DNA from: a virus
DNA: 27,214 nucleotides
IMG/VR virus record: IMGVR_UViG_3300027976_000172
Span: 1 to 27,214 of that record
Direction: 5' to 3' (one strand)
The position numbers and the translations under genes are program-made. Shown here one piece after another: positions 9,610 through 13,906 of this stretch. The notes beneath the pieces were generated by a model. The model ran no database searches and was not told the DNA's origin. It saw only the letters and a list, made by a program, of their open reading frames with translations. The first letter of the stretch is position 1, and each line of letters opens with the position of its first letter.

Positions 9610-10836
9610 CTAAGGTTTCTTACCTTTATTTTTAAATCCATACATACCACCAAAGACCCAATTATGGGGTGAATCAGCTAATTGTACCCGATTTACTTCG
9701 TTGTTAGCCATATAAAAATCTACGTTTCTAGATAATGTATCAACATCTGTTGAATCAGTACTAGTCACCACCCAACTCCCAACCATCGCCTTAGCTTGTC
9801 CCTTTGATTTTTCTAAATCTTTAAATGAACTCATAGCAACAAATAAAGCCATACCAATTGACATAAGTAAATCATCGTGGTACCCTTTCATGTGGTCGGG
9901 TCTACCATTGATGTATACAAAAGTATCCATCTCCATAAGTGCTCTAGCTGAACGAAGTTTAAATGTATCCATACGAACACCCTTTTCTAATTCCGATATA
10001 ATAAGATTTCTGTTTTTTTGGAAGTTAAGACCTGGTAATTTACCATTATCCATGTGTTTTTGTAGTGACCTATTGTTCTCTAACGCATCAATACCAACCG
10101 TAATATCGTAGTATAGTAATTTTTTAGGGTAACCCAAGTCGATTAGTTTAAGTACTGTTGCTGCACCCCATCCACCTGTAATATCCACAACAATAAAAGC
10201 GTTGTATGAATTACCGTAGTGTGCACACATCTCACCAAGTACATCGGGTGCAACCTTACCTTGGTATTCAGCCACTTGATTACCTGTTGTGTAATCAAAC
10301 ACACATATACCAGCAGCATCCGCCGCTGAACCTGATGAAGCATCCGCCGCTAATATGTATTGATGGTCCTTAATTGGGTCTTCCCATATCCACATATTAC
10401 CATCAAGCCACTCTTTTCTAATTGGGTCTTTAACATTATGTTTTTCCTGTCTCTTGACGTACTTATCATCAATAACGTTATCACCAGAACCTAAAAACGA
10501 ACAATTATGGGTTAATATATTATTTGCGTAATAAAGGTTTCCATCAGCCACCTCTAATAAATCATATACATAATCATTATGTGTGATAATGGTGTTACTA
10601 ACCACTTGGTAGTTGCCATCTTTTGTGGTTAGATAATTTTCAGTGGTTAATTCACCAGATTTTAATAAAACCCCATCATTGGTGGGGTATACATGGTTTT
10701 CAGTTGATTTAATTACCAACCCGTTCTCTAACTTTATTTCATGAACATATTTAGCATAACTCCGTTTAACACCGATGAAATCTTTATAACCACTGTCAGT
10801 TAAAACTTTATATTTAGTATTTTTTTTATTTTCCAT
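9610..10836 (-). CDS. C-terminal split-intein fragment plus nuclease half of TerL (gp17-like)
   Basis: Residues 1-111 are the C-part of an intein: block B TENH at 45-48, block F VYDLLEVADGNLYYANN (90-106) and the C-terminal splice motif THN ending at His110-Asn111, directly followed by Cys112. Residues 112-408 are the TerL C-extein: CSFLGSGDNVID, then the RNase H-fold nuclease with ILAADASSG (Asp165), FIVVDITGG (Asp218) and HDDLL (Asp321/322), equivalent to the acidic triad of T4 gp17. After trans-splicing it would join the N-half at QELL-CSFLGS. The start ATG overlaps the stop of the endonuclease gene by 11 nt. N-extein 324 plus C-extein 297 gives 621 residues, close to T4 gp17 (610). Confidence 0.92.
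   Translation of the reverse strand: MENKKNTKYKVLTDSGYKDFIGVKRSYAKYVHEIKLENGLVIKSTENHVYPTNDGVLLKSGELTTENYLTTKDGNYQVVSNTIITHNDYVYDLLEVADGNLYYANNILTHNCSFLGSGDNVIDDKYVKRQEKHNVKDPIRKEWLDGNMWIWEDPIKDHQYILAADASSGSAADAAGICVFDYTTGNQVAEYQGKVAPDVLGEMCAHYGNSYNAFIVVDITGGWGAATVLKLIDLGYPKKLLYYDITVGIDALENNRSLQKHMDNGKLPGLNFQKNRNLIISELEKGVRMDTFKLRSARALMEMDTFVYINGRPDHMKGYHDDLLMSIGMALFVAMSSFKDLEKSKGQAKAMVGSWVVTSTDSTDVDTLSRNVDFYMANNEVNRVQLADSPHNWVFGGMYGFKNKGKKP
10504..10836 (-). other. C-intein segment (111 residues)
   Basis: This segment holds intein blocks B, F and G and ends His-Asn before Cys+1. Block B normally belongs to the N-part of split inteins, so the break here lies unusually near the N-terminus. 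The layout is like the described AceL-TerL type. Confidence 0.88.
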
Positions 10837-11911
10837 GTATAAAATTAATGCATTTATTAACCATTAAATCTTTATTTTTCTTATAATCACCCTCACTAAC
10901 AACCATAACCTTATAACCTAAATCATCTAATAGTTTATATCGTAAATTATCGGCATCAATCGTTTTATTATGCCAATAATCACCATCAAATTCAATAATC
11001 TTATTACCAACCTTAAAGTCGGGTTTAATACAGTGTTTACCAAGTTTAATTTTATCACTATCACGAAGGTTTATAAAAAACTCACCACCATTAGTTGCGT
11101 AATAAATGTTTTCTGTCACATTTATTCCATCCACCACATCATTAAATAATTCTTGTGATATTTTAGAAAATGTATCTTTAAATAATTTATCGGTGTTTTT
11201 ATGTAACGTGACCATTTTTTTATTATAATATTTAAGGTATTTACCCTCCCACTCCGTACCGTATTTATTTTGGAACCATTCTTTACTATTTGTTTTCGTA
11301 TTACCTAATTTATCACGTCTTTTATCACGGTGTGACATCCAATCATCACCATATTTAAATTTAAAATACTTCTCTGATGGGTATTTAGGTTGACATTGAA
11401 TACAAAACGGTTGGAAATTATTTACATAATCAACATATACTGATTGTTTTTGTTTATATGTAACACCATTCCCACATTCACATTTAATTTTATCTATATT
11501 ACCACCATGTTTAACTAAAAAAATTATTCTAGCCATTATGGATTTACTATTCTTATCTTTTAATTTATCTAAAGATTTTGTGTGTTGATAAACACTGTTA
11601 TATAATAAACCATCACATGACATTAATTTACGATTACCAGACCGACCCATAAAATTAATGTATGTATCGTTATACCCTAATTTATTAATAGTGTCATCCA
11701 TGTCGTAAACACCCATATCATTAACATGTTCTTTAATAGTCTCCCACCCTTTTTTAACGTAGTCAGTTTGTTGTAATTTTAGTTGAGTAACCTTACCCAT
11801 GATTGATGCATATGTACGACCTAAATCGTCAGCCACACACTTTAAAGGTTTATGGTTAACATTTTTTATGAGATATTCAGTATCAACATCCGACCATCGT
11901 TTATAATTCAT
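10826..11911 (-). CDS. Homing endonuclease of the Vsr-like/EDxHD type between the two TerL halves
   Basis: The 361-residue protein begins with a Myb/SANT-like helix-turn-helix (RWSDVDTEYL, then LKCVADDLGRTYASIMGKV) for DNA binding. A C-x-C and C-x2-C pair (Cys144, 146, 170, 173) suggests a zinc-binding knuckle. Two copies of a KYG-[DT]-[DE]-W motif follow. The C-terminus is a PD-(D/E)xK-related nuclease: KPDFKVGNKIIEFDGDYWHN with Glu307, Asp309, Asp311 and His314, then LGYKVMVVSEGDY, matching Vsr-like/EDxHD homing endonucleases. It would cut an intein-less terL and drive copying of the whole insertion. Its start and stop each overlap the flanking terL fragments by 11 nt, so all three genes lie in one transcript. 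Family assignment is by motif. Confidence 0.88.
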   Translation of the reverse strand: MNYKRWSDVDTEYLIKNVNHKPLKCVADDLGRTYASIMGKVTQLKLQQTDYVKKGWETIKEHVNDMGVYDMDDTINKLGYNDTYINFMGRSGNRKLMSCDGLLYNSVYQHTKSLDKLKDKNSKSIMARIIFLVKHGGNIDKIKCECGNGVTYKQKQSVYVDYVNNFQPFCIQCQPKYPSEKYFKFKYGDDWMSHRDKRRDKLGNTKTNSKEWFQNKYGTEWEGKYLKYYNKKMVTLHKNTDKLFKDTFSKISQELFNDVVDGINVTENIYYATNGGEFFINLRDSDKIKLGKHCIKPDFKVGNKIIEFDGDYWHNKTIDADNLRYKLLDDLGYKVMVVSEGDYKKNKDLMVNKCINFIHGK

Positions 11912-12965
11912 TATATAAATCCTCTATTTTTAATTCTTTTATTTCACCAGTGTTGTTATCCATCACTTTAATATAAGTATCACCAACGACACATAAAAGT
12001 TCTTGTGCTATTGAACGGGGATTGTGATTAAGGTCAGAACACATACTTTCAAACCAACCAGATGTTGGTGTAAAACCTTTTTCAATCATATCATCCCAAG
12101 TACTTTCAGGAACCGTACATTCCTTACCAGTATAATGATTAATATCACCACTACATGGGTCAAATATACTCTCAAGTACTTCACCAGACTTTTCATTAAG
12201 TAAATTCCATGTCATCCCATGTGGGAATAAATCATTTTTATTCCTACCATTGTAACGAGGGTCTTCATACCATTTCATATCAACGGTATTGTAGTTATTT
12301 TTCCCTAGTTTAGCTAGTTTATATGTTTTATGGTATAATGGGTCATACCCATTTGGTGTTGAAATTAAAATACATCTACCACCTGTTGATAAAGATGGTT
12401 GTGCTGCTTCATAGAATTCTTCCCCCCTACTACCCTCAATAAACGCTGCCTCATCCACAATTATGATTGATGGTGTGTAACCCCTCAAAGCATCTTTTGA
12501 TGATGCCACGGCCTTTACTTCACTACCATTATGCATTCTATAATGTGAATCCGAATTTTTATCAGACGAAAACCAATCCTTAACATTTGGTGGTCTATAT
12601 ATATCCATCCATTCAGGTAGTTGTCTAGTAAAATCCCTAATTTTCTTAAGAAATTCCTTAGCTGTTTCCTGTTTATTTGCTGCAATTAGGATTTTATGTT
12701 TAGATTTTGGACTAGCTAATGCGGTTAAGACCGCTGCGTAAGCCGCTGTTGTTGTTGATATCCCAGCTTGACGAGGTTTCATCACAATATTGTGTCTATG
12801 GTCAATATAACCATGTACTAGTTCTTTTTGTTTTGGAAACAATGTGAATGGTACCTCACCACCTTGTGTTCTATCTTCAGTGTGTAGGTAACTCTCAATA
12901 GCATATATAGGGTCCTTAAGACACCTAGCTATTTCCAAAAGTTTTTGTCCTTTTGTTAAACTCAT
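11901..12965 (-). CDS. ATPase half of TerL (gp17-like) plus N-terminal split-intein fragment
   Basis: Residues 1-324 are the packaging ATPase: adenine-binding LFPKQKELV region, Walker A KPRQAGISTT (63-72), Walker B IIIVDEAAF (167-175), coupling motif ILISTPNG (199-206), and the terminal SIAQELL that precedes the T4-like cleavage-domain linker. Residues 325-354 are the N-intein: CVVGDTYIKV (block A, catalytic Cys325) through KIEDLYNEL and a stop. Only 30 residues of intein are present, so the gene looks truncated but is not: the remaining intein and TerL half are encoded at 10836-9610. The start follows a GATATTTATA box by 3 nt. TerL powers DNA translocation into proheads and cuts concatemers. 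Confidence 0.93.
   Translation of the reverse strand: MSLTKGQKLLEIARCLKDPIYAIESYLHTEDRTQGGEVPFTLFPKQKELVHGYIDHRHNIVMKPRQAGISTTTAAYAAVLTALASPKSKHKILIAANKQETAKEFLKKIRDFTRQLPEWMDIYRPPNVKDWFSSDKNSDSHYRMHNGSEVKAVASSKDALRGYTPSIIIVDEAAFIEGSRGEEFYEAAQPSLSTGGRCILISTPNGYDPLYHKTYKLAKLGKNNYNTVDMKWYEDPRYNGRNKNDLFPHGMTWNLLNEKSGEVLESIFDPCSGDINHYTGKECTVPESTWDDMIEKGFTPTSGWFESMCSDLNHNPRSIAQELLCVVGDTYIKVMDNNTGEIKELKIEDLYNEL
11904..11993 (-). other. N-intein segment (30 residues)
   Basis: It starts at Cys325 of the TerL N-half with CVVGDTYIKV and ends KIEDLYNEL. From memory the AceL-TerL N-intein also starts CV-GDT and has KIEDLY near its end, at about 25 residues. Confidence 0.88.
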
Positions 12966-12968
12966 ACC

Positions 12969-12978
12969 TATAAATATC
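12969..12978 (-). promoter_or_regulatory. GATATTTATA box 3 nt before terL
   Basis: On the minus strand GATATTTATA is followed by GGT and the terL ATG. It is one of four instances with exactly 3-nt spacing. Confidence 0.5.
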
Positions 12979-12994
12979 TAATTGTGTGGAAAAG

Positions 12995-13024: not shown

Positions 13025-13060
13025 GGTGTAAGTCCCGTTAATCCGTAGACCTTATCCAAC
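13025..13060 (-). pseudogene. Decayed tail of the 13126/13542 gene family
   Basis: On the minus strand this 36-nt stretch matches the C-terminal codons of the two neighbouring paralogs (those for LDEVYGITGLTP), with several changes including a stop. Similarity continues upstream (to about 13076) into the part matching the ITRW codons with a small deletion. It looks like the remnant of a lost tandem copy. Confidence 0.7.
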
Positions 13061-13090
13061 TGTTATAAGCTCCTGCCCGCCTTCTGATGG

Positions 13091-13126
13091 GGTGTGAGTC
13101 CAGTTATTCCGTATACCTCATCCAAC
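13091..13126 (-). repeat. Perfect 36-bp copy of the paralog tail
   Basis: These 36 bases are identical to 13157-13192, which lie inside the 13126-13479 gene. The copy begins at the stop codon of that gene and so is a free-standing tail fragment, 66 bp from its match. Confidence 0.85.
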
Positions 13127-13479
13127 TAGGTCAGATAAAAATTCAATGTTTGAGATGGTGTGAGTCCAGTTATTCCGTATACCTCATCCAACCACCTGGT
13201 TATAACTTCCTGAATTTCATTATAGTTAAACCCAAAACGAGACCCCAAAAGTGACCATATTTCACCATAATTAATATAACAACTCCCATTTTTTTTATCC
13301 TGATAATAAAAAAACAATTTTTTATCATTATCATCAACATAATATGTTTTATTACCATCAACAACTGGTTTTAAATCCCCAAAATTATCGATTAACCACG
13401 ATAGTGGGGTTTCAAATCCCGATTGGTCAATCCAATCAAAGTTATCAATTTCCTCCTTTATTATTTTTCTAATGTTCAT
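13126..13479 (-). CDS. Small protein, tandem paralog A
   Basis: Not recognised as a known family. The 117-residue protein starts MNIRKIIKEEIDNFDWIDQ and has a body with KTYYVDDNDKKLFFYYQ, CYINYGEIWSLLGSRFGFN and a C-terminal EVITRWLDEVYGITGLTP. It is a near copy of the next gene (start 13880), the two differing mainly at the N-terminal linker and the last residues; nucleotide identity is also high, pointing to recent duplication. The IIKEE start resembles N-termini seen on other small proteins in this window. A GATATTTATA box lies exactly 3 nt before the ATG. It is between terL and the 537-residue protein gene. Confidence 0.8.
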   Translation of the reverse strand: MNIRKIIKEEIDNFDWIDQSGFETPLSWLIDNFGDLKPVVDGNKTYYVDDNDKKLFFYYQDKKNGSCYINYGEIWSLLGSRFGFNYNEIQEVITRWLDEVYGITGLTPSQTLNFYLT

Positions 13480-13482
13480 GTT

Positions 13483-13492
13483 TATAAATATC
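13483..13492 (-). promoter_or_regulatory. GATATTTATA box 3 nt before paralog A
   Basis: On the minus strand GATATTTATA is followed by AAC and the ATG at 13479. The surrounding 13480-13503 and 13881-13900 segments are nearly the same, so the box was probably duplicated with the gene. Confidence 0.5.
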
Positions 13493-13503
13493 TATATTTT
13501 TTT

Positions 13504-13533
13504 AGTCCCGTTATTCCATAGACCTCATCCAAC
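13504..13533 (-). repeat. Truncated 30-bp copy of the paralog tail
   Basis: This stretch matches 30 nt of the tail repeat (GTTGGATGAGGTCTATGGAA then TAACGGGACT on the minus strand). It lies downstream of the paralog B stop, immediately before the promoter box of paralog A. Confidence 0.75.
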
Positions 13534-13541
13534 TTCACTTA

Positions 13542-13880
13542 TTAAAGATAAGGTTGCAAAGTCGGTGTGAGTCCCGTTATCCCATACAACTCATCCAACC
13601 ACCTGGTTATAACCTCCTGAATTTTCTTATAGTTAAACCCAAAACGAGACCCCAAAACTGACCATATTTCATAATCATTAATATAACAATTCCCATTTTT
13701 TTTACCCTGATAATAATAAAACAATTTTTTATCATTATCATCAACATAATATGTTTTATTACCATCAACAACTGGTTTTAAATCCCCAAAATTATCGATT
13801 AACCACGATAGTGGAGTTTCACCCTCATCAAACCAATCAAAGTTATCAATCTCCTCTTTTATTATTTTTTTGATGTTCAT
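13542..13880 (-). CDS. Small protein, tandem paralog B
   Basis: This 112-residue protein starts MNIKKIIKEEIDNFDWFDEG and is about 85-90 percent identical by eye to paralog A across SWLIDNFGDLKPVVDGNKTY, the Tyr-rich middle and RWLDELYGITGLTP. Differences cluster in the FDW-to-PLSW linker (two residues shorter after DEGE) and at the very C-terminus, where tail repeats have been exchanged. Its own tail repeat is at 13564-13599. A GATATTTATA box lies 3 nt before the ATG and a strong hairpin at 13907 insulates it from the upstream gene. Function unknown; the N-terminus suggests possible virion packaging (inference). Confidence 0.8.
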   Translation of the reverse strand: MNIKKIIKEEIDNFDWFDEGETPLSWLIDNFGDLKPVVDGNKTYYVDDNDKKLFYYYQGKKNGNCYINDYEIWSVLGSRFGFNYKKIQEVITRWLDELYGITGLTPTLQPYL

Positions 13881-13883
13881 AAT

Positions 13884-13893
13884 TATAAATATC
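13884..13893 (-). promoter_or_regulatory. GATATTTATA box 3 nt before paralog B
   Basis: On the minus strand GATATTTATA is followed by ATT and the ATG at 13880. Confidence 0.5.
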
Positions 13894-13906
13894 TATATAA
13901 ACAGGA

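What the first reader, a model, noticed from the sequence alone, without database searches (positions are those of the whole stretch)
9610..12965. TerL split by an atypical split intein with a separate homing endonuclease gene in the gap
Seen: the packaging ATPase half ends in a 30-residue N-intein (CVVGDTYIKV... at Cys325), the nuclease half begins with a 111-residue C-intein containing block B (TENH), block F and THN before Cys112, and a complete 361-residue Vsr/EDxHD-type endonuclease gene lies between, overlapping both halves by exactly 11 nt. Known: fractured genes with split inteins and a Vsr-like endonuclease were described from marine metagenomes, and AceL-TerL-type inteins have very short N-parts. 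Inferred: TerL is rebuilt by protein trans-splicing and the insertion is mobile as one unit. The extein join QELL-CSFLGS restores a 621-residue gp17-like protein. The triple, symmetrical overlap is an unusually compact form.
Basis: partly seen in the sequence, partly recalled or inferred. Interest (0 to 1): 0.88.

Follow-up and report, generated by a model that had tools for sequence, protein, structure and literature searches.

The report
Phage terminase split by a selfish intein
An uncultured phage carries its DNA-packaging motor gene in two halves, each ending in part of a self-splicing protein element, with a selfish DNA-cutting-enzyme gene between them; this is a well-preserved new example of a known kind of mobile element, and its relatives show how such elements lose their cutting enzyme.

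Summary
terL of a T4-like virus contig is two genes: 324 extein residues plus a 30-aa N-intein, and a 111-aa C-intein plus 297 extein residues. A complete 361-aa EDxHD (Vsr-like) endonuclease gene lies between them and overlaps each by 11 nt. Both intein parts match the two chains of PDB 6DSL (Cat, consensus intein with atypical split), with the same split point. The nuclease's best sequence and fold match is homing endonuclease I-Bth0305I. The sister terL (92% identical, no intein) has an exact empty site, so the inserted unit is 1490 nt. This is a new member of the known 'fractured gene' kind (AceL-/GOS-TerL-type split inteins). The 11-nt overlap is not special: it is the commonest endonuclease/C-gene overlap among EDxHD relatives. 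A census of 143 distinct inteins at this terL site finds 57 with a GIY-YIG gene, 33 with EDxHD (one fused to the C-intein), about 18 split without an intact endonuclease gene and 8 contiguous. Several endonuclease-less forms, including the window's near relative L083, keep the last codons of the lost endonuclease next to the C-gene start. Splicing and homing were not tested experimentally.

The parts
11994..12965 (-). TerL N-extein (ATPase part), 324 aa, ends ...SIAQELL
   Evidence: Pfam Terminase_6N 2e-8; PHROG_2 terminase large subunit 1.6e-35
11904..11993 (-). N-intein, 30 aa, Cys1 at codon 11993-11991; stop 11901-11903
   Evidence: (6DSL chain A CatN, E 0.033), (aligned with the contiguous intein of L081)
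10826..11911 (-). 361-aa EDxHD/Vsr-like endonuclease gene; conserved PDF, IIEFDGDYWH and C-terminal C..F
   Evidence: (3R3P I-Bth0305I E 2.7e-5)
11901..11911 (-). 11-nt overlap of N gene and endonuclease gene (ATGAATTATAA)
10826..10836 (-). 11-nt overlap of endonuclease gene and C gene (ATGGAAAATAA)
   Evidence: 11 nt is the commonest endonuclease/C-gene overlap among EDxHD relatives at this site
10504..10836 (-). C-intein, 111 aa: block B STENH, block F YDLLEV..NLYY, block G ILTHN
   Evidence: (CatC E 6e-15), (TIGR01443 above cut-off)
9610..10503 (-). TerL C-extein (nuclease part), 297 aa, begins Cys+1 (CSFLGS)
   Evidence: PHROG terminase
10504..11993 (-). whole inserted unit (N-intein + endonuclease gene + C-intein), 1490 nt, absent at the exact codon boundary in relatives

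Best explanation
A mobile element sits in terL between codons 324 and 325 of the uninterrupted gene. The host gene is translated as two proteins. Their intein parts associate, fold into one Hint domain and trans-splice (Cys1, then Cys+1, then Asn cyclisation) to give a 621-aa TerL. The endonuclease encoded between the halves cuts intein-less terL at the empty site in a co-infecting phage, and repair from the interrupted copy spreads the whole 1490-nt unit. Shown here: the anatomy, intact catalytic residues, homology, split point, empty sites, and the presence of the element in relatives. Inferred: splicing, cutting and homing. It is an atypically split (S2-type, as AceL-/GOS-/Cat-TerL) intein in a fractured gene with an EDxHD homing endonuclease.
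For: Coordinates and overlaps. Both intein parts match the two chains of 6DSL. TIGR01443 is above cut-off. A contiguous homologue at the same site (L081, 144 aa, pLDDT 92.6) folds as an intein like 6DSL, RadA, gp41-1 and VidaL, and the window's break falls in its least confident stretch, right after helix 23-29. The nuclease matches 3R3P by profile and by fold. More than 30 related terLs are uninterrupted at the same codon boundary, in near relatives SIAQELL|CSFLGSG, and the sister L084 (support 98) lacks the element while L083 carries the intein. Window versus L083 C-intein dN 0.35 / dS 1.31 points to constraint on the intein. No Rfam intron was found. Fractured terL occurs in isolated phages, with the intein parts annotated in PX29.
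Against: No splicing or cutting was measured. The N-intein match on its own is weak (E 0.033, 30 aa). The endonuclease model is confident only for residues ~250-360. dS values are near saturation. Presence/absence on the tree fits gain and loss as well as fresh homing.
Confidence: 0.9

Rival explanations
1. The two halves work unspliced as a two-subunit terminase, as in the two-piece ribonucleotide reductase made by an endonuclease gene insertion; the intein remnants are dead.
For: The break falls near the ATPase-nuclease linker, where a two-piece enzyme is conceivable; genes split by endonuclease genes that work in two pieces are known (PMC10448857).
Against: All splicing residues are intact in both halves. 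Block B His and HN-C-x-FLGS are invariant across the eight distant homologues aligned. Intein dN/dS is below 1. The two halves keep the matching split point of a proven intein type.
Confidence: 0.05
2. The element is immobile: the endonuclease has been co-opted or is inactive, and the intein is inherited only vertically and lost at times.
For: L083 carries the intein without an endonuclease gene; intein and extein synonymous divergence between window and L083 are similar; only two of the eight closest terLs carry the intein.
Against: The window endonuclease is full length with the conserved PDF and IIEFDGDYWH motifs, and its relatives recur at two terL sites and in a DnaB-type helicase gene.
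Confidence: 0.2
3. The interruption is removed from RNA (intron) or bypassed by frameshifting.
For: terL RNA splicing is known in phage ICP1 (PMC10448857).
Against: No Rfam intron match in the window; the segment next to each extein codes for intein blocks, with start and stop codons in place.
Confidence: 0.01

Closest known systems
AceL-TerL, GOS-TerL and Cat (6DSL) atypically split inteins
   Same: TerL host (AceL, GOS); split after the first helix (S2; PMC13014065); short N-part (known range 15-37 aa; TerL Cat 30 aa, window 30 aa); both parts align to CatN and CatC
   Different: Different phage lineage; EDxHD rather than the GIY-YIG endonuclease that loci such as L180, L223 and L225 carry; C-intein about 30-40% identical to other inteins at this site apart from L083
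Fractured genes with split inteins and Vsr-like (EDxHD) homing endonucleases (Dassa et al. 2009, doi 10.1093/nar/gkp095; full text not held)
   Same: Gene halves each bearing an intein part, with a free-standing endonuclease of this family in the gap
   Different: The DnaB-type helicase examples seen here (L014, L054) use the canonical split with a large N-part; the window uses the atypical split in TerL
Homing endonuclease I-Bth0305I (PDB 3R3P)
   Same: Catalytic domain fold and motifs
   Different: I-Bth0305I belongs to an intron; this one sits in a split intein and has a different, longer N-terminal region
gp17 halves of isolated phages: Vibrio Va1, Aeromonas PX29, Providencia PSTRCR_127, Serratia 92A1
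   Same: terL in pieces with a C-intein at the corresponding place; Va1 carries the same endonuclease family
   Different: In Va1 the endonuclease is fused in frame to the C-intein; in PX29 the record notes a GIY-YIG domain and C-intein in one protein

Membership tests
Intein (Hint domain, class 1) | Cys/Ser1, block B T..H, block G (H)N and nucleophilic +1 residue | tested here: met
   Cys325, STENH, THN-Cys112; invariant H48, H110, N111, C112 in A1; TIGR01443 above cut-off
Intein (Hint domain, class 1) | Horseshoe Hint fold | tested here: met
   PDB match of the C-part to CatC 6e-15; contiguous homologue L081 modelled at pLDDT 92.6 and matched to many inteins. The window's own two parts were not folded together
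Atypically split (S2) TerL intein | N-part of 15-37 aa, break after the first helix | tested here: met
   30 aa; break falls just after helix 23-29 of the homologue; definition from PMC13014065
Atypically split (S2) TerL intein | Trans-splicing activity | not testable with these tools
   needs co-expression
Fractured gene with free-standing homing endonuclease | Host gene in two ORFs, each with an intein part, endonuclease ORF between | tested here: met
Fractured gene with free-standing homing endonuclease | Clean empty site in relatives | tested here: met
   exact codon boundary in more than 30 relatives
EDxHD/Vsr-like homing endonuclease | Catalytic motifs and fold | tested here: met
   PDF, IIEFDGDYWH; 3R3P by profile E 2.7e-5 and by Foldseek prob 1.00, E 3.5e-3; Pfam MTES_1575 and DUF559 matches are below their cut-offs
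EDxHD/Vsr-like homing endonuclease | Cuts the intein-less allele and drives homing | not testable with these tools
   needs cleavage and co-infection assays

The most novel reading that the evidence does not exclude
The 3' end of the endonuclease gene doubles as the translation-initiation region of the C-intein gene. Endonuclease loss then proceeds by internal deletion that spares this tail, split inteins outlive their endonucleases, and some are later re-fused into contiguous mini-inteins, so splitting is not a one-way step. Supporting scars: L083 NCKINFINGK* (12 of 14 spacer nt identical to the end of the window endonuclease; 71 of 200,000 shuffles reach this), L170 ILNECWKNV*, L217, L355; L385 seems to keep both ends of a gutted endonuclease; L293 and L316 are contiguous relatives of split L302.
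Probability: 0.35. Interest if true: 0.62.

Novelty: new member of a known kind. Interest (0 to 1): 0.48.

Why it matters
The case is a complete, intact example of an atypically split intein with an EDxHD endonuclease, in a lineage where a 92%-identical empty allele (L084), a 90%-identical allele with the intein but without the endonuclease (L083) and the full element all exist. That makes endonuclease cutting, homing and endonuclease loss directly testable in one terL background. The site census shows that one terL site with one split region hosts two unrelated endonuclease families, fused, endonuclease-less and contiguous forms. It is also a source of further short-N split inteins, which are used as protein-labelling tools.

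Tried and rejected
RNA intron: no Rfam match. Endonuclease as a DNA-repair or defence gene: rejected as main reading because its profile and fold match is a homing endonuclease and its relatives sit in split-intein gaps. 'Symmetrical overlaps are special': rejected. 'Low intein identity (60%) to L083 against about 90% in exteins means separate acquisitions': not supported, since synonymous divergence is similar, though saturated. A regex scan of all C-site junctions for N-inteins missed most of them and was replaced by a profile; one search also used wrong hit coordinates and was redone. The scar test (6 of 18 loci against 0.15 expected) used motifs chosen after seeing some of the loci. Apparent tails in L351, L369 and L385 overlap the C-gene's own codons by about 25 nt, so they are not independent evidence. 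Dassa 2009 could not be read.

Full report
Observation. On the minus strand, terL is two genes. The N gene (12965-11901, 354 aa) carries 324 terminase residues and then CVVGDTYIKVMDNNTGEIKELKIEDLYNEL. The C gene (10836-9610, 408 aa) begins with 111 residues ending ILTHN and continues CSFLGSGDN.... Between them a 361-aa ORF (11911-10826) overlaps each half by 11 nt. The exteins join to a 621-aa protein with Terminase_6N and PHROG terminase matches. The record is a 27,214-base virus contig with T4-type portal and head protease genes; the closest named phages by portal are Microcystis phage Mel-JY01 and Flavobacterium phages 'immuto'. Two contigs from other datasets are identical here.

Intein. 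The C-part hits 6DSL chain B (CatC) at 6e-15 and gp41-1 at 4e-8, and TIGR01443 above cut-off exactly at residues 89-112. The N-part's best PDB hit is 6DSL chain A (CatN; weak on its own, E 0.033), ending at the same place. PMC13014065 puts natural atypical splits after strand 2 (VidaL, PolB16) or after the first helix (AceL-TerL, GOS-TerL), with N-parts of 15-37 aa and TerL Cat at 30 aa. A contiguous homologue at the same terL site (L081) gives a pLDDT 92.6 model matching RadA, Cat, gp41-1 and VidaL inteins. The window's break maps just after its helix 23-29, in the stretch of lowest confidence. All splicing residues are present.

Endonuclease. The ORF belongs to a family with invariant S..SQ.LF, DF, IE.DG.YWH and a C-terminal C..F. 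Its best PDB relative is I-Bth0305I by profile (2.7e-5) and by fold of the confident C-terminal part (Foldseek prob 1.00; the N-terminal half of the model is poor). Residues 3-57 match a DNA-binding regulator family (PHROG_323), in line with a site-recognition domain.

Empty site and relatives. More than 30 viral terLs (mostly 55-95% identical in the ATPase half) are uninterrupted at the codon boundary of the insertion, in near relatives SIAQELL|CSFLGSG, which defines a 1490-nt unit, 10504-11993. On the terL tree the sister of the window is intein-less L084 (98), with intein-bearing L083 next. L083 has the same split intein (60% identical; exteins 88-91%) but no endonuclease gene: 14 nt separate the halves. 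That spacer is AATTAATTTTATAA against CATTAATTTTATAC at the end of the window endonuclease, and in the endonuclease frame reads NCKINFINGK* against NKCINFIHGK* (71 of 200,000 shuffles). Since the C..F tail is conserved in the family, L083 most simply lost its endonuclease by internal deletion. dN/dS (NG86) between window and L083 is 0.27 in the C-intein and 0.56 in the N-intein, against 0.06 in exteins, with dS near saturation.

Census. 440 stretches in IMG/VR carry this junction; 143 distinct junctions were sampled over three scans and the other loci. 57 are split with a GIY-YIG gene, 32 with EDxHD, 1 with EDxHD fused to the C-intein (Vibrio phage Va1), 24 split with neither model matched, 8 contiguous, and 21 have no N-part in reach. 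Of the 24, five hold a sizeable other or gutted ORF in the gap (L248, L250, L255, L284, L385) and L349 a 103-aa ORF; about 18 have no intact endonuclease gene. GIY-YIG/C-gene overlaps are 8 nt in most cases (48); EDxHD/C-gene overlaps are most often 11 or 25 nt. Endonuclease-less L170 (FILNECWKNV*), L217 (INECEVRNV*) and L355 (IRRLLEKKSWKNV) keep GIY-type tails. Some loci carry two insertions in terL (L018, L071, L081).

Verdict. A fractured terL with an atypically split intein and an EDxHD homing-type endonuclease is well supported and is a new member of a known kind. Fractured genes with split inteins are cited to Dassa et al. 2009, which could not be opened here. That splicing and homing happen is inference from intact, conserved anatomy. 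The possible general point, that the endonuclease tail serves as the start region of the second gene and survives endonuclease loss, is new to me but rests on few loci and partly post-hoc motifs.

Noticed in passing
window 13025-13599: Five copies of a 36-nt direct repeat, with 66-nt spacing inside two clusters, next to two duplicated small genes (13126-13479 and 13542-13880; 258-nt duplication, 94% identical) just upstream of terL.
   Followed up: no
window 12951-12980, 13465-13494, 13866-13895: A shared AT-rich box (gene sense TAGATATTTATA) right before the ATG of the terL N gene and of both duplicated genes; possible promoter or start signal.
   Followed up: no
L018 3154-7601: terL in three pieces with two split inteins and two unrelated endonuclease genes: EDxHD at the Walker A site and another, HNH-like by eye, at the Walker B site.
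   Followed up: partly
L071 3040-7245: terL in three pieces: EDxHD endonuclease at the Walker A site and a GIY-YIG-like ORF at the same site as the window's insertion.
   Followed up: partly
L081 3160-6552: A 279-aa EDxHD endonuclease ORF lies in another frame inside an unbroken 1130-aa TerL ORF, so the interrupted stretch is open in two frames.
   Followed up: no
L161 3349-5634 (Vibrio phage Va1): Endonuclease fused in frame to the C-intein and TerL nuclease half, so splicing would release an endonuclease-intein protein.
   Followed up: partly
L293 191-1376 and L316: Contiguous inteins almost identical in the C-part to split L302, hinting that split inteins can re-fuse.
   Followed up: partly
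L385 3718-3971: A 101-aa ORF with what looks like an endonuclease N-terminal helix-turn-helix and the family's C-terminal tail but no catalytic middle: a gutted endonuclease gene.
   Followed up: partly
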